This document shows, in pieces, positions 6,673 through 19,361 of a stretch of DNA of 43,233 bases (position 1 is its first letter; every line of letters starts with the position of its first letter). A program made the position numbers and the translations under genes. Source of the stretch: an uncultured Gammaproteobacteria bacterium. GTDB lineage: Bacteria; Pseudomonadota; Gammaproteobacteria; Steroidobacterales; Woeseiaceae. The notes beneath the pieces were generated by a model. It saw only the letters and a list, made by a program, of their open reading frames with translations. It was not told the origin of the DNA and did no database searches. The stretch covers positions 1-43,233 of the forward strand of contig CALBPI010000014.1 of assembly GCA_937899415.1 (NCBI GenBank). Direction: 5' to 3'.

Positions 6673-8028
6673 TTACAGGGCCAGAACGAATGCGGCGAGC
6701 GCATCCTGTTCCGCCTTGCTCAATGACTTAAACCGCGCTGCAGCGGTTGCTGCTTCACCGCCGTGCCAGAGCACGGCTTCCTGAATCGTGGCTGCACGAC
6801 CGTCGTGCAGAAACCCCGTTTCGGGATTCAGCTGCTGCTGTAATCCCAGAGACCAGAGTGGCGGCGTACGCCATTCGCCACCCGTGGCGTCGCCCTGCGC
6901 GATGCCGTCGGCCAACAACGGCCCCATGTCGTGCAGGAGTAGATCGGTGTAGGGCCAGATCGTGGTCTGCTCGCCGGCGACAACAATGTCGTGTGAAGGC
7001 GTGTGACATGCGGCGCACGCGAGATCCTCGAACACCCGTTGGCCACGTCGTACTTTGGCCGTTGCGCGTCGCGCTTCCGGAACTGCCAGCGACGCTGTGA
7101 ATTCGACCGCCGTGTCGAAAAGGATGCCGCCAATCTCGTGATCGCCCTGCGGCCCGTTGCCACTTCTTTGGTCATGGCACCGTTGCTGCTGCGGGGCGCA
7201 GGTTTCGACGGGGTTGTAGACGCTGGTGATGCCAATGTCATTGCGAAACGCATCTGCCGTCTGCGCAGCAACGGTGGGATGCGGCGCCTTCCAACCGAAA
7301 CGTCCTGCGGCTCTCGCTTCGCCCTCGCCCACCCAATGAACTCGACCCGTGATCCCGTCACTATTGGCGTCGTCCGGGTCTTCCAGCGCTTCAAGCCGTG
7401 ACTGCGGAATCGCTTCCAGCAAGCCCAGGCCTACGAGCCCTGGCGCAACGCGCGGCGAAATCGCATAAGCAGGGATATCGGGCACGCTCGCGTGCACACG
7501 ATTCAAGACGATGTCCGTGTCATCGAGCTCTAGCGTCTCAACCTTGACGCTCGGTCGCGGCTCGCCAGGGTAGAAGCCTGATAATCGCTTGCCGACACCC
7601 GTCACGTCATAAATGGCTCGAGTTTGAAGCTGGTCGCCAAACCGCGAATGAATGTCGTCAACGTCGGCGAGTTTGAAGGCCATCGCCGGCGTATCGGGGT
7701 CGTTGAGTAAGCTGTCACCGCGCCCCGCACCCGCATGACAAGACTGACATGATCGCGCGCTGAACAATGGACCCAGCCCATCGCGGGCCGTGGTGGAGGA
7801 CGGCGCCTTGACCCACGGATCACGAAACATTGCGAAGCCGGTCCAGAAGCGCAGCTCGGTTTCACGATCCATCGTCGGCGTGGGCTGTACGAGCGTGTGC
7901 GACGTGGCGCCCCACGCGAGGGTCCACGCACCACCCGGCGCTGGCAGCGGGCCCGTGGCGTCGCGCTGGCTGCACGAGCCAATCAGCAGCGTACTGCCGA
8001 TCAAAACTGTTGCAGCCAGCCGAATCAC
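6673..8028 (-). CDS. Di-heme oxidoreductase-like lipoprotein (DUF1111), short form
   Basis: A 451-residue member of the di-heme oxidoreductase/putative peroxidase family (DUF1111). Two covalent heme sites are visible: SCQSCH near the N-terminus and CAACH in the C-terminal half. A lipoprotein signal, TLLIGSC, precedes the domain. The start is GTG at 8028, overlapping the upstream gene's stop as GTGA. Longer reading frames upstream would run far into the neighbouring gene without resembling anything. Shared C-terminal motifs with the upstream gene (WPYTDLLLHDMG, WRTPPLWSLG, FLHDGRA, EAVLWHGGEA) show the two are diverged duplicates. Location is periplasmic, membrane-anchored. The family's reaction is unproven; electron transfer linked to iron uptake is an inference from context. 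Confidence 0.92.
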   Translation of the reverse strand: MIRLAATVLIGSTLLIGSCSQRDATGPLPAPGGAWTLAWGATSHTLVQPTPTMDRETELRFWTGFAMFRDPWVKAPSSTTARDGLGPLFSARSCQSCHAGAGRGDSLLNDPDTPAMAFKLADVDDIHSRFGDQLQTRAIYDVTGVGKRLSGFYPGEPRPSVKVETLELDDTDIVLNRVHASVPDIPAYAISPRVAPGLVGLGLLEAIPQSRLEALEDPDDANSDGITGRVHWVGEGEARAAGRFGWKAPHPTVAAQTADAFRNDIGITSVYNPVETCAPQQQRCHDQRSGNGPQGDHEIGGILFDTAVEFTASLAVPEARRATAKVRRGQRVFEDLACAACHTPSHDIVVAGEQTTIWPYTDLLLHDMGPLLADGIAQGDATGGEWRTPPLWSLGLQQQLNPETGFLHDGRAATIQEAVLWHGGEAATAAARFKSLSKAEQDALAAFVLAL

Positions 8029-14666: not shown

Positions 14667-15218
14667 TCAGGTTGCGGCCGGCTTGCGGCCCAGCGCAACA
14701 CCCATGAGGCCGAGGCCCAGCAGGAACAGTGCGCCCGGTGCCGGCACGCGTGTCGCGATGGTCGTGATGCCCTGGCCGCCGGCCAGTTCGATGGGGCTCG
14801 AGCCGTCAAAGATGCCTTCGGCCGGACCGCCTGTGCCGTAGCACGCGTCCTCAAAGACGCACCAGGCGATCGACGTGGTGTTGCCGAAGAAAAAGCCCGT
14901 GTCCGCCGCGGAGAAGTCGAAGAACAACGCATCCAGAGTGGCCGTGATCCCCGTACCGTTGAAGTCCACGATCAGCGACGAGTTGCCGCTGTTGACGGTG
15001 GTGCTGCCACCGCCGATGCCCGGCGATGCGATCAGGAAGTCCCAATCGAGGATATCCGTGATATCCAGGAGGCCCTGGTTGCCATTCGTGGTGATGGTGC
15101 CCGTGACCGAACCGTCGCCGATACCGCGGTCGACGTTGTAAACAAACATCGCCGAAGCCATCTGCGGCAGCGCAAGTGCGGCGATCAGCGTGAGTGCAAT
15201 CCGTTTGATCCGTGTCAT
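14667..15218 (-). CDS. PEP-CTERM/VPXXG-type sorting-signal protein
   Basis: A 183-residue exported protein. It has an N-terminal signal peptide (RIKRIALTLIAALALPQMASA), a Gly/Thr/Asp-rich beta-type middle, and a C-terminus VPAPGALFLLGLGLMGVALG followed by RK. This is the tripartite PEP-CTERM layout: short motif, hydrophobic helix, basic end. Such proteins are recognised by exosortase in species with exopolysaccharide systems; no exosortase gene lies in this window. The start at 15218 has GGGGAG upstream and puts the signal peptide at the N-terminus; upstream ATGs at 15239 and 15284 add only non-conserved residues. The gene is monocistronic, with its own terminator. Function unknown. Confidence 0.85.
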   Translation of the reverse strand: MTRIKRIALTLIAALALPQMASAMFVYNVDRGIGDGSVTGTITTNGNQGLLDITDILDWDFLIASPGIGGGSTTVNSGNSSLIVDFNGTGITATLDALFFDFSAADTGFFFGNTTSIAWCVFEDACYGTGGPAEGIFDGSSPIELAGGQGITTIATRVPAPGALFLLGLGLMGVALGRKPAAT

Positions 15219-15431
15219 GTCCGAGCTCCCCGGGGTCATCCTGCCCCTTATTTTGTACCGGTGTTGCAATCCGCGTACCAACAATAAGCTTGATGTTAAA
15301 TCAGCAACTTAGCGAGGGAAGCGACCGGGCAGCGCGTTGACTTGTAAGAAATCCCGACGATTTTGGTGACGGCAGGACGGGCGTTGCTGAACCGCGGAAA
15401 TCTCGCCAATTCCCCTGCGAATGGCCACGAT

Positions 15432-15459
15432 TTGTCGCGCCCGACCGGTTGCGTATACT
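15432..15459 (+). promoter_or_regulatory. Possible sigma70 promoter of the protease operon
   Basis: TTGTCG (15432-15437) and TATACT (15454-15459) are separated by 16 bases and lie 43 bases before the first ATG of the operon. The -10 hexamer is good and the -35 is partial. The rest of the 284-bp divergent gap (15219-15502) shows AT-rich sequence near 15250-15310 but no further recognisable site. Confidence 0.4.
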
Positions 15460-15502: not shown

Positions 15503-16270
15503 ATGAGTGAGGCAAGGGTACGCTGGGCCCCAACAGCTGGACACGCGATCGTGACGGCCGCATTGATGTTGGCGTCAGGGGTCCAGGCAGCGCCCAGCGA
15601 ATGCAATCGTAAGATTGCCACGCAATCGGGAGAGACGGACGCCTACCAGCGCCGCGATGATGGCCGGTGCGAGGGGTTCTATCAGCAACCGATCTCGGTC
15701 ACCGGTATCGAGATCGTCGGGCTGCAGTACGGCGCGCCCGTAGATCAGTCTCGCCTGGGTGATGCGGCGTCATTGCCGCTTGTGCCCGCGGGCCTGCCCG
15801 AAGATAGCGGCCACCAGATCATCGGCCGCTCACTGGACCCGGACATCTATTACCAGATCGACGCCCGCTCAACGGCGAGCGAGGGTTTCGACTGGAGCCT
15901 CGAGTCGATCCGCAGCCTCGACAATGCCGCAAGCATCATGCCGCTGTGCTTCATCGCCTGCGAAGGCGATTGCCGCCAGCGCCAGCCCGCCTACCGCCCG
16001 GTTCGCGTCGAGGGCATCGACAGTGAGGAGCTCATACTAATCCTGCAGGCACGCGTCGCGCTGGCGAAAGTCTTCTATCGGCTCACGCCAGCATCCTCTG
16101 GGCAGGCAGGTCACAACGACTCTATTGATCTGGGCCGGTTTCCACCGCGTCGACCGGTTGTCATTGGTCTGCCGGGCGACATCGACGGCGGCGTGTACAC
16201 ACTCGTGGTCCATGCGCTCACGACGGACGGTCAGGCGGACCAGGTGAGTGCCACGGTGTATGTGCCATGA
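15503..16270 (+). CDS. Exported Cys-containing protein of unknown function, first gene of the protease operon
   Basis: A 255-residue protein with no family I can name. A signal peptide is clear (hydrophobic GHAIVTAALMLASGVQA, cleavage before AP). The mature part has Cys residues at ECNRK, GRCEGF and in the cluster CFIACEGDC, suggesting disulfides in the periplasm, and a C-terminal beta-rich segment (GGVYTLVVHALTTDGQADQ) like an Ig-type or DUF4384-like domain. The ATG at 15503 is preferred over 15449 because it starts right before the signal peptide. It overlaps the next gene by 4 bases (ATGA), so the two are translationally coupled and probably work together at the envelope. Confidence 0.8.
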   Translation: MSEARVRWAPTAGHAIVTAALMLASGVQAAPSECNRKIATQSGETDAYQRRDDGRCEGFYQQPISVTGIEIVGLQYGAPVDQSRLGDAASLPLVPAGLPEDSGHQIIGRSLDPDIYYQIDARSTASEGFDWSLESIRSLDNAASIMPLCFIACEGDCRQRQPAYRPVRVEGIDSEELILILQARVALAKVFYRLTPASSGQAGHNDSIDLGRFPPRRPVVIGLPGDIDGGVYTLVVHALTTDGQADQVSATVYVP

Positions 16271-17253
16271 GCGATCCATTGGAAACGGGCGATGCCGTTG
16301 AGAATGGCGCAAGCCAGGATACGCCAGGCGAGCCCGACACGGGCGAAGCCAAAAAGGATCGACTGTCGATTAGCGCTTTTGCACTGCTCTTCGCTGTCGG
16401 CGCTTTTTTCTTCGCCATCATCGCCAGAGACGTTCAAACGACTGACGTCAGAATTGAGATTCAAACGCGCTATGCAGCCTTCGATTTCGAGCGCGGCGAA
16501 CTGCTGTCGCTGGTCGCCGATTCGATCACGCTGTACGACATCGATGCGAGCCAGTTCGCGGGCACGACACGAAACGGTATCGATGTGACCGTTGATCGCG
16601 CCGATGCCGAGAAGAATGTCACTTTGAGCAGCATTTCCTTCCCTGGCGATCGCCGGGTGCGCATGACCGTACTCGCACAGGGTGTGAACGGCTACGACCT
16701 GAGCTGGCAGCCCTACGACGCATCCCTCGCAGTCATTTCACCGGAAGGATCGGAGGTCACACTGGGAAGCGGCGAGCCGGTCATCCAGGACAGTGACACA
16801 CTGCAGTTCCTTCAACCCGGCGACAGCACGTCGCGGCTTGCGGTTACGACCCCCATCAGCAGCGGCGATGTACTCAGAACGGATGCTCTCGTAGCGGTGT
16901 CGTTCACACCGCCAATGTCGACGGACGACGATGTCGTGTTCAGCGAAATCGTGGACGGCGCGATTGTCTGGTCTGAGCTGGACGACGAGGTCATGGATAT
17001 CCCGCACGGCGAAACCGTCGCGCTGAAGTTTGCCGACACCGCGACGCTCACCATGACGCTCGAACCAGAAGGGATTGGCGTCGTGATCGCAGGTACGGTG
17101 AGCGACGTACGATTTGGCGCGGAAGCGCCCGGGCAGGCCAAGATGCCCAGCTGGTTCCAGTTCCTGAGTCACCACACCTGGGCCAAGGCAGCCAGTGCAT
17201 TCATCGCTGTATTCCTGGTTCCCGTTGTCATCGAGCGTATGTACGCGAAGTAG
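16267..17253 (+). CDS. Bitopic/two-span inner-membrane protein of unknown function
   Basis: A 328-residue protein not matched to a known family. The first ~35 residues are charged and cytosolic. One membrane helix follows (SISAFALLFAVGAFFFAIIA, about 36-58), then ~245 beta-rich, Asp/Thr/Val-rich residues that should lie in the periplasm, and a second helix near the C-terminus (AKAASAFIAVFLVPVVIE) ending in basic residues. The layout is a large periplasmic loop held at both ends. It is coupled by a 4-base overlap to the gene before it and lies 11 bases before the protease gene, so a role as membrane partner or sensor for that protease is plausible but inferred. Confidence 0.8.
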   Translation: MSDPLETGDAVENGASQDTPGEPDTGEAKKDRLSISAFALLFAVGAFFFAIIARDVQTTDVRIEIQTRYAAFDFERGELLSLVADSITLYDIDASQFAGTTRNGIDVTVDRADAEKNVTLSSISFPGDRRVRMTVLAQGVNGYDLSWQPYDASLAVISPEGSEVTLGSGEPVIQDSDTLQFLQPGDSTSRLAVTTPISSGDVLRTDALVAVSFTPPMSTDDDVVFSEIVDGAIVWSELDDEVMDIPHGETVALKFADTATLTMTLEPEGIGVVIAGTVSDVRFGAEAPGQAKMPSWFQFLSHHTWAKAASAFIAVFLVPVVIERMYAK

Positions 17254-17264
17254 TGGAGTGACAC

Positions 17265-18314
17265 GTGTTTCGAGTGCGACCTATCAAACAACTACACGAC
17301 CTCGCTCTGGGCGTCGTCGCCTTGATGTTCGCCTTCACCCAAGCACCGTTGGCAAACGCGGCCGATCCGCGCGAACTCGTCGTCATGCTCACGGCGAAGA
17401 CGGAGACAGGCCGGGCAATCTACGGCTCCGGCATCATCGTGGGCGCCGACGCGACCCACATCTTTATCGCCACTGCCGACCACAACGTGTTCAATCGCGA
17501 CGTATTTCCCCAGGAGCAATACCGCGACATCAGCGTCAGCTTCAGTTATCGCGGCGGCCAGAGCTATCCGGCCGAGTACGTTGGCATCTCAGACATCAAC
17601 AACGACCTGACCGCACTCAAGGTGCGCCGCGACACGAGCCTGCGGCTGCCGAAGTTTGAGATCAGCTCGCGCGCGCTCACGGCCTCCGCCTACATCGGCG
17701 AAGCCGTTGTCGGCGTCGGACACCCCAGCTGGCAGATGCCCGCCTCGGGCGACTACGTGATCGACCGCGATGCACGCAACCTCATCGTCGTGAAGTCCTC
17801 AGCTATCCGCGAGGGTTTCTCGGGCGGCGGCCTGTTTGACTCCAGCGGCCGCGATCTCATCGGCATGATCATCGAAACCAACGGCCGCGAAGCCACGGTG
17901 CTGCCCGCGCAGTTCGTGGGCGCCTGGTTCGAACGCCACCGCATGCCCCTAAGCGTTGCCGGGCTCGAGACGCGCCGGGAGACCCAGCAAGTGGTCACGA
18001 CGCTCGACAAATGGGACGCCGGCGAGACCATCGATATCGGTCTGCAGGTGTCACGCATCGTCAATCCCGGCAGCGAAGGGAACATCCAGTACGAGGTGCT
18101 CAACTCGGCCGGCAACATCATGGCCAAAATTCGCAACGGCGACCGAATCGAGAAGATCAATCACAAGTCGATACCGCCAACCTTTAACTGGGAGCGGGAT
18201 GTACTGAACCCGCTCTCCCAAAGCCGTTCGGGCGTGACCTTTTCGGTCCGGCGCAACGGCATGGTCTTCGTGACCCGGTGCGAGCACCGGTCATCAGAAG
18301 TCCGCTGCAGATAA
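17265..18314 (+). CDS. Exported trypsin-like serine protease with PDZ-like tail
   Basis: A 349-residue chymotrypsin-fold protease. A signal peptide ends LANAADP. The catalytic triad is visible: His73 in IATADHNVF, Asp114 in INNDLTALKV, and Ser186 in GFSGGGLFD. The His motif has Asp where most HtrA-like enzymes have Ala (TAAH), and GFSGG replaces GNSGG. After the protease domain, GDRIEKINHKSIPP looks like the ligand-binding part of a PDZ-like domain, so the overall layout recalls DegP/HtrA but is shorter. The start is GTG at 17265 with GGAG 6 bases upstream. It lies in a four-gene operon of envelope proteins; its substrate may be one of them, which is inference. Confidence 0.87.
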   Translation: MFRVRPIKQLHDLALGVVALMFAFTQAPLANAADPRELVVMLTAKTETGRAIYGSGIIVGADATHIFIATADHNVFNRDVFPQEQYRDISVSFSYRGGQSYPAEYVGISDINNDLTALKVRRDTSLRLPKFEISSRALTASAYIGEAVVGVGHPSWQMPASGDYVIDRDARNLIVVKSSAIREGFSGGGLFDSSGRDLIGMIIETNGREATVLPAQFVGAWFERHRMPLSVAGLETRRETQQVVTTLDKWDAGETIDIGLQVSRIVNPGSEGNIQYEVLNSAGNIMAKIRNGDRIEKINHKSIPPTFNWERDVLNPLSQSRSGVTFSVRRNGMVFVTRCEHRSSEVRCR

Positions 18315-18368
18315 AGAGAACAAGACAAGAGAAACGACAGACAAGACGAAATCAGGGGATGTGAGCTC

Positions 18369-19361
18369 ATGATCAACAAGACTTACTGCGCACTCGCGCT
18401 CGCCATGCTCGTCGTGGCACCACAGGCTTCGGCCAGTATCTTCGGCCCAACGAAGGCGCCGCTCGAAGTTGTCGTCCAGGCTCAACATCAGCGCGCCAGC
18501 GAGCTGACTCGCATCGCGGTTTTCGATTTCACAGGCCAGGACGGCGTGTCGTTCTCCAACGCATTGCGTGACCAGCTGAGCTCCGCGCGTGTCCGCGGTG
18601 AGCCCACGAAGACGCTGCTCACCTCACAAATGCTGCAGCCCAGCGAACAGACGATTCCGAAGATTCTCGAGGCCGGCAAACAGATGGACGTCGAAGCCAT
18701 CTACCACGGCTCCGTCGACGTCGTGAACTGGGAAACGACACGAACCACCGAAGAGCGCAACGTCTGCACCAAGATCCGCAACAAGTATTTCGGGTCCTGC
18801 GAAGAGGGCTACATGAAGAAGCAGAACGTACGCTGCGACGTCATTACGGGCCACTACCAGGCCACGCTCACGATCCTCGCGGTGCCTAGCGGCGACACGG
18901 TCTACACGCGTCAGATCCCCAAGTCTCAGTCGTTCAAGTACTGCCAGGGTGACAAGGGTGCTTTGCCAGGCGGTGGCGCTGTTGCCGCCGCGGCGCGCAC
19001 CGACGTACTCGCCGAATTCGTGGGTGATCTCATTCCCCGCACCGAGACCATTAAGGTCGAGCTCAAGAAGTCTGGGCGCATCGACAAGAACGACAGCAAA
19101 GTCTTTAAGGACGCCATCAAGGCCGCCAAGGCCGGTCGCTGGGACAAAGCCTGCGGCCGCTGGGGCGCCATGGAAGAAAAGTACGATACGAACATCGGGC
19201 TCGTCTACAACCTGGGGCTCTGCGCCGAGTACCTGGGCGATCTCGACCGTGCGCTGACGCTCTACCAGAAAGCCGACTCGCTCGTGATCGACGACGACGC
19301 GATCAACGCCGCCATCAGCCGCGTTAATGGCGCGCGCTCGGTCGCTAATCTGGGGATGTAG
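18369..19361 (+). CDS. Exported CsgG-like protein with TPR-like C-terminus
   Basis: A 330-residue protein with a signal peptide (CALALAMLVVAPQASASIF). The segment ELTRIAVFDFTGQDGVSFSNALRDQL resembles the start of CsgG/LpoB-type domains, which build beta-alpha folds in periplasmic lipoproteins, but no lipobox Cys is present. A Cys-rich middle (CTKIRNKYFGSCEEGY, VRCDV, YCQGD) suggests disulfides. The C-terminus holds a TPR-like repeat, NIGLVYNLGLCAEYLGDLDR to ALTLYQKAD. Last gene of the operon, 54 bases after the protease. CsgG-like assignment is tentative; an adaptor that binds other envelope proteins through its TPR is a reasonable guess. Confidence 0.78.
   Translation: MINKTYCALALAMLVVAPQASASIFGPTKAPLEVVVQAQHQRASELTRIAVFDFTGQDGVSFSNALRDQLSSARVRGEPTKTLLTSQMLQPSEQTIPKILEAGKQMDVEAIYHGSVDVVNWETTRTTEERNVCTKIRNKYFGSCEEGYMKKQNVRCDVITGHYQATLTILAVPSGDTVYTRQIPKSQSFKYCQGDKGALPGGGAVAAAARTDVLAEFVGDLIPRTETIKVELKKSGRIDKNDSKVFKDAIKAAKAGRWDKACGRWGAMEEKYDTNIGLVYNLGLCAEYLGDLDRALTLYQKADSLVIDDDAINAAISRVNGARSVANLGM

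What the first reader, a model, noticed from the sequence alone, without database searches (positions are those of the whole stretch)
15503..19361. Four-gene operon of envelope proteins built around a trypsin-like protease, function unknown
Seen: four plus-strand genes in tight order (4-base overlap, 11-base gap, 54-base gap). They encode an exported Cys-rich protein, a membrane protein with a large periplasmic loop and two helices, a protease with triad H73/D114/S186 and a PDZ-like tail, and an exported CsgG-like/TPR protein. All four are predicted outside the cytosol. Known: HtrA-type proteases police envelope proteins, and CsgG/LpoB-type folds act at the outer membrane. Inference: the set could be a regulated-proteolysis or surface-assembly system, with the membrane protein as sensor or substrate. 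I recognise no described system with this set.
Basis: partly seen in the sequence, partly recalled or inferred. Interest (0 to 1): 0.65.

Follow-up and report, generated by a model that had tools for sequence, protein, structure and literature searches.

The report
Periplasmic trypsin-type protease with TPR partner
These bacterial genes probably encode an exported protein-cutting enzyme and its helper protein; relatives of the helper sit beside a caspase-type enzyme instead, so this genome seems to carry a version with a different cutting domain, next to two proteins for which no relatives were found.

Summary
A conserved four-gene system is not supported: genes 1 and 2 found no convincing relative, and gene 3 only two weak S1-protease matches, in the genomes searched. 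Gene 4, however, belongs to a readable family of exported CsgG-like/TPR proteins with six invariant cysteines. In a sixth genome, of the window's class, CsgG/TPR and caspase are fused in one lipoprotein. Best reading: an envelope protease-adaptor pair (PDZ protease plus TPR partner, working like Prc-NlpI or CtpA-LbcA) with an S1 catalytic domain where kin use C14, and two orphan proteins as sensor, tether or substrate. The pairing is shown by comparison; binding, activation and targets are inferred. Gene 4's grouping with the caspase-linked proteins is favoured but not settled (one of the trees leaves it open). The paper searches made found no description of this pairing.

The parts
15503..16270 (+). 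gene 1: exported 255-aa protein, 5 Cys, no known domain
   Evidence: no Pfam/NCBIfam family over cut-off; 1 of 34 genomes (own) at E<=0.01
16267..17253 (+). gene 2: 328-aa inner-membrane protein, TM-like 31-49 and 304-322 with a roughly 250-residue periplasmic part, no known domain
   Evidence: no Pfam family at E<=1; own genome plus one marginal stop-interrupted match in 369 genomes; AF2 model uninformative
17265..18314 (+). gene 3: exported S1 (trypsin-like) protease with PDZ-like tail
17424..17867 (+). S1 protease domain of gene 3 (H73, D114, S186)
   Evidence: PF13365 in the window's genome at G000:C14:17424-17867
18033..18311 (+). PDZ-like tail of gene 3 (residues about 257-349)
18369..19361 (+). 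gene 4: exported CsgG-like/TPR protein, no lipobox, six mature Cys invariant in its family
18507..19058 (+). CsgG-like N-terminal part of gene 4 (residues about 47-230, limits approximate)
   Evidence: by alignment to relatives that match PF03783
19101..19328 (+). TPR part of gene 4 (residues about 245-320)
15432..15459 (+). sigma-70-like promoter match upstream of gene 1 (1 found, 1.0 expected by chance)
   Evidence: not evidence of function

Best explanation
Genes 3 and 4 encode an envelope protease-adaptor pair: an exported S1 protease with a PDZ-like tail, and a soluble exported CsgG-like/TPR protein that binds it and activates it or hands it substrates, as NlpI does for Prc and LbcA for CtpA. 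It is the S1 form of a module that in the nearest relatives of gene 4 uses an exported caspase (C14) with a PDZ-like tail in the same place. Genes 1 and 2 are lineage-specific partners; the most likely roles are a membrane tether, sensor or substrate (gene 2) and a periplasmic ligand or regulator (gene 1). Shown: gene order, domains, the C14 counterparts, one caspase-CsgG/TPR fusion. Inferred: physical contact, activation, targets, the roles of genes 1 and 2.
For: Gene 4's family was found in 41 loci of one scan, in 7 other genomes of 370 in the class and in others of 397 in the phylum. Five places have an exported C14 caspase with a PDZ-like tail immediately upstream on the same strand: L012, L036, L087, L147, L148; L147 and L148 are from one genus. 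A profile search of all frames in the 132 held loci with a gene-4-family frame, many of them repeats of one place or with about 1.5 kb of flank, found C14 beside or fused to it only at these places and L102, and S1 beside it only in the window. L102 is one 666-aa lipoprotein with CsgG/TPR and C14: a fusion of the two partners. The gene 3 tail scores above 1000 of 1000 and 5000 of 5000 shuffles against the caspase tails. Trees: window with L012 and L036 97/99, the six peptidase-linked rows on one side of a branch 92/74. Precedents: Prc-NlpI (PMC5686067, abstract) and CtpA-LbcA (PMC11021448, passages).
Against: No other S1 plus CsgG/TPR pair was found, so the swap rests on one genome. Adding L102-L104 to the tree leaves the window unresolved; its branch is long. 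The gene 3 tail fits an HtrA PDZ profile as well as or better than the caspase tails (10.3 against 8.4 bits), so the tail does not show descent from a caspase-PDZ protein; single-sequence comparisons of the tails gave almost nothing, and whole gene 3 scored 6.7 bits against a best shuffle of 7.3. Most gene-4-family members have no peptidase beside them. The adaptor role is by analogy: Prc and CtpA are another protease family and NlpI and LbcA are lipoproteins; gene 4 lacks a lipobox.
Confidence: 0.5

Rival explanations
1. Gene 3 is an ordinary HtrA-type quality-control protease that happens to lie beside unrelated exported proteins; gene 4 acts alone.
For: PF13365 and a PDZ-like tail; structural matches are HtrA proteases (circular in part because HtrA rows were in the alignment).
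Against: NCBIfam DegP/HtrA and DegS models score far below cut-off (27.8 against 416.2; 18.2 against 422.95); no relative among 396 genomes of the order apart from two weak S1 matches; the C14 proteins hold the same place before gene 4's relatives.
Confidence: 0.25
2. Gene 4 forms a CsgG/HfaB-like export channel or assembly platform, and the protease processes its cargo.
For: Relatives of gene 4 pass the CsgG cut-off.
Against: Gene 4 itself has no CsgG hit at E<=1, no lipobox and no curli-type neighbour recognised in the four-gene set; membrane strands were not tested.
Confidence: 0.1
3. A peptidoglycan or flagellar accessory set in the manner of LpoB or FlgO/FlgP/FlgT, with a protease added.
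For: Other branches of gene 4's family sit with LPP20-like, MltC-like and FlgT_N-like genes; weak LpoB matches in relatives.
Against: None of those neighbours is in the window's operon, and the peptidase-linked branch does not have them beside gene 4.
Confidence: 0.1

Closest known systems
Prc-NlpI (E. coli) and CtpA-LbcA (P. aeruginosa)
   Same: Envelope protease with a PDZ domain plus a TPR-bearing partner that activates it or brings substrate (PMC5686067 abstract; PMC11021448 passages).
   Different: Prc and CtpA are carboxyl-terminal processing proteases, not S1; NlpI and LbcA are lipoproteins without a CsgG-like part; gene order was not compared.
HtrA/DegP/DegS proteases
   Same: S1 domain with HDS triad and a PDZ-like tail, exported.
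   Different: Far below the family cut-offs; divergent tail; sits in an orphan operon with a CsgG/TPR gene.
Exported C14 caspase-PDZ plus CsgG/TPR gene pairs (L012, L036, L087, L147, L148) and the fused L102
   Same: Same order and strand, similar gaps, PDZ-like tail, gene 4 homologues.
   Different: C14 instead of S1; accessory genes are CHASE2 or DUF4384 proteins, unlike genes 1 and 2. I found no published description in the searches made.
Caspase/trypsin effector exchange in cytoplasmic bacterial conflict systems
   Same: Trypsin-like and caspase-like peptidases replace one another in one context (PMC7159879 and PMC8195603, passages).
   Different: Those systems are built on NTPases, vWA/MoxR and EAD domains; the window's set is exported and shows none in the scans made.

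Membership tests
HtrA/DegP serine proteases | S1 domain with H, D, S triad | tested here: met
   PF13365 2.9e-11; H73/D114/S186 aligned with HtrA triads
HtrA/DegP serine proteases | C-terminal PDZ domain | tested here: inconclusive
   No Pfam PDZ hit at E<=1; above shuffles against PDZ-like tails; HtrA PDZ profile 10.3 bits; model pLDDT 68-83 there, with HtrA rows in the alignment
HtrA/DegP serine proteases | Curated NCBIfam family cut-off | tested here: not met
   27.8 against 416.2 bits for degP_htrA_DO; 18.2 against 422.95 for DegS
CsgG/HfaB | PF03783 match in gene 4 | tested here: not met
   No hit at E<=1 for gene 4; relatives P0005, P0006, L003 and L088 do match
CsgG/HfaB | Lipoprotein signal | tested here: not met
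   No lipobox in gene 4
CsgG/HfaB | Ring-shaped outer-membrane pore | not testable with these tools
   -
PDZ protease plus TPR partner (Prc-NlpI, CtpA-LbcA) | Protease of the carboxyl-terminal processing type | tested here: not met
   Gene 3 matches Trypsin_2 alone in Pfam
PDZ protease plus TPR partner (Prc-NlpI, CtpA-LbcA) | TPR in the partner | tested here: met
   Family profile against designed TPR proteins 1.7e-13; TPR_1 2.2e-4 in gene 4, below the curated cut-off
PDZ protease plus TPR partner (Prc-NlpI, CtpA-LbcA) | Physical binding and activation | not testable with these tools
   -
C14 caspase-PDZ plus CsgG/TPR pair | Exported peptidase with PDZ-like tail directly before a gene-4 homologue | tested here: met
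C14 caspase-PDZ plus CsgG/TPR pair | C14 catalytic domain | tested here: not met
   Gene 3 is S1
C14 caspase-PDZ plus CsgG/TPR pair | Gene 4 in the same clade | tested here: inconclusive
   97/99, 95/96, 92/74, unresolved with L102-L104 added; AU p 0.213 for the seven held together
Known anti-phage defence systems | PADLOC model match | tested here: inconclusive
   Gene 3: LmuA 1.3e-5, 22.7 bits, no curated cut-off shown; genes 1, 2 and 4 none at E<=0.1

The most novel reading that the evidence does not exclude
The operon is an envelope counterpart of the bacterial caspase/trypsin effector systems: a CsgG/TPR adaptor platform that can carry either a C14 or an S1 executioner protease, armed by fast-evolving, lineage-specific sensor proteins (here genes 1 and 2) and released on envelope injury or attack.
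Probability: 0.25. Interest if true: 0.75.

Novelty: new variant of a known kind. Interest (0 to 1): 0.55.

Why it matters
If right, it names a partner for exported bacterial caspases, whose roles are largely unknown, and shows that their place can be taken by a trypsin-type protease. That makes a two-protein system that can be expressed and tested directly, and extends the protease-adaptor principle of Prc-NlpI to other protease classes in the envelope.

Tried and rejected
Four-gene conservation: rejected. Genes 1-3 have no phmmer match (E<=10) among 2782 ORFs of the 52 loci then held except the window's own copies; gene 3 none in 15 genomes with gene 4 relatives, an answer the tool itself calls uninformative without a positive control; gene 2 in 369 class genomes only the own one and E 0.00876 through a stop codon; gene 1 own only in 34 relatives (it was not searched more widely in whole genomes). 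Plasmids: none for genes 1, 2, 3; viral contigs: none for gene 1, gene 3 or the gene 4 alignment A3 (gene 2 not scanned there).

Genes 1 and 2 as diverged CHASE2, DUF4384, ETEC_3214 or LPP20 proteins: 16 hhalign comparisons, none above its shuffles (3 to 30 of 30 shuffles as good).

Structure: gene 2 model useless (pLDDT 38.4). Gene 3 model weak (54.6); its HtrA matches (TM about 0.38) are partly circular since four HtrA rows were in the alignment. PDB sequence search with gene 3: nothing at E<=1.

A motif scan for caspases with SGHG only missed AGHG members and was replaced by profiles; the side labels printed are unreliable for overlapping frames, so sides were read. The S1 profile also missed a trypsin (PF00089 1.8e-6) on the opposite strand about 2.3 kb downstream of the L102 fusion; it is not adjacent, but shows that profile is not exhaustive.

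Rows dropped before tree counts: one search left out eight short or repeated loci; searches also thinned the Smithella-type group and left out L039, L049, L050; one search left out L102-L104, and adding them (further thinned) unsettled the window's place.

Full report
Observation. The four genes are as described. Gene 3 holds H73, D114 and S186 and a Trypsin_2 domain over the curated cut-off. Gene 2 has two TM-like segments; genes 1, 3 and 4 have signal-peptide-like starts. A promoter-like match lies 43 bases before gene 1, but one is expected by chance. GC content of the operon, 0.59-0.63 per kb, is close to the rest of the window.

Setting. The window is a whole contig, C14 of a 3.9-Mb genome. 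The class is Gammaproteobacteria by inference: contigs of genomes marked 'same class' (108359, 35766 and 4088 bases) equal in length and match the records titled Gammaproteobacteria or Methylococcales. The genome has six Trypsin_2 matches, of which gene 3 is the weakest (46.0 bits).

Distribution. Gene 3 and gene 4 were each found in the own genome only, of 60 relatives. Gene 3: 3 of 396 genomes in the order, own included; the other two are weak (2.8e-4, 8.7e-4), an S1-type exported protein (L053) and an HtrA-like one (L054). Gene 4: 8 of 370 class genomes, own included; 27 of 397 phylum genomes with a three-row profile, many of the weakest through the TPR alone; 6 of 148 in the order with a four-row profile, own included, the other five through the TPR region alone; 27 of 149 in the family of G1108. 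Genes 1 and 2 found no convincing relative.

What gene 4 is. One scan of genome contigs gave 41 relatives. Relatives pass the CsgG cut-off and carry lipoboxes; gene 4 does neither. Six cysteines (C133, C144, C156, C192, C262, C285) are invariant in 7 of 7 and 4 of 4 aligned sequences, which fits an oxidising envelope location (inference). The C-terminal TPR is clear by profile.

Neighbours. In L012 the order is CHASE2 protein, 257-aa exported protein, C14 caspase with tail, CsgG/TPR. In L036 it is DUF4384-caspase, double DUF4384, C14 caspase with tail, CsgG/TPR. In L087 a C14 caspase with a PDZ_2 domain over the Pfam cut-off (2.5e-7) precedes CsgG/TPR (start taken at 7808, my choice of ATG), with a DUF4384/CsgG protein further upstream. 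L147 and L148, one genus, have C14 proteins with long linkers and a similar tail. Gaps are 53, 54, 28, 8 and 14 bases; in the window 54. PDZ is a Pfam call only in L087; L036 is below cut-off (0.011) and L012, L147, L148 have it by alignment (L012-L036 tails 1.7e-10). All five caspases have signal-like N-termini. L102 fuses CsgG/TPR with C14 in one lipoprotein; near it lie DUF4384, OmpA and tubulin-like genes and a trypsin about 2.3 kb away on the other strand. One search covered all frames of the held loci: 132 had a gene-4-family frame (with repeats and short flanks), C14 was beside or fused to it only at these six places, S1 beside it only in the window. So most of the family has no peptidase neighbour in the DNA seen; other branches sit with LPP20-like, ETEC_3214 and MltC-like genes or with a FlgT_N-like gene.

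Is the window of the same kind? For: position and order; gene 4's best match is L012 (134.7 bits); trees put the window with the peptidase-linked rows (97/99; 81/82 to 95/96; 92/74, 92% of 200 bootstrap trees, 0 of 500 label shuffles as low). The gene 3 tail beats 1000 of 1000 shuffles against three caspase tails (9.9 bits) and 5000 of 5000 against five (8.4 against 7.3); hhalign 27.1 against at most 16.0 in 100 shuffles. Against: long branch with warnings; window unresolved once L102-L104 are added, AU p 0.213; the tail fits HtrA PDZ domains at least as well. I therefore claim the same architecture and probable common adaptor, not that gene 3 arose from a caspase-PDZ gene.

Mechanism. Prc is activated by the TPR lipoprotein NlpI, which docks substrate (PMC5686067, abstract); CtpA needs the TPR lipoprotein LbcA (PMC11021448, passages). 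By that analogy gene 4 would bind gene 3 and gate or feed it; the CsgG-like part may assemble or anchor the complex. Gene 2 could hold the unit at the inner membrane or be the regulated substrate; gene 1 is a periplasmic partner. All of this paragraph beyond the precedents is inference.

Known and new. Trypsin-like and caspase-like peptidases replace one another in cytoplasmic conflict systems (PMC7159879, PMC8195603, passages). A survey of prokaryotic caspases (PMC3501461; passages and its operon section) lists varied operons, with no occurrence of CsgG, PDZ or trypsin in its main text. Searches for caspase with DUF4384 or CsgG (23 papers, 20 titles seen, none on this pairing by title), for caspase/CsgG/TPR/PDZ/periplasmic protease (none) and for trypsin-like/caspase/CsgG/operon (none) found no description. 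Only open-licence papers are held. I rate it a new variant of a known kind (envelope PDZ protease plus TPR partner), with moderate interest because the S1 form rests on one genome.

Noticed in passing
L102 6784-8784 (+): CsgG/TPR and C14 caspase fused in one 666-aa lipoprotein, near DUF4384, OmpA, tubulin-like and trypsin genes.
   Followed up: partly
window 14667-15284 (-): Divergent gene upstream of the operon encodes a PEP-CTERM protein (PF07589 21.0 bits, cut-off 20.7).
   Followed up: no
L010 5289-9817, L011 7905-12496, also L043, L045, L047: Pseudoalteromonas and Shewanella carry another conserved envelope cluster: CsgG/TPR, LPP20-like, ETEC_3214, MltC-like transglycosylase.
   Followed up: partly
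L018 4291-10981 and other Smithella-type loci: CsgG/TPR gene sits with a FlgT_N-like gene downstream of genes that I read as yidC, jag and trmE (function names from recall); the caspase survey reports caspases beside trmE and yidC in Xanthomonas relatives.
   Followed up: no
window 17265-18314: Gene 3 matches the PADLOC model LmuA weakly (1.3e-5).
   Followed up: no
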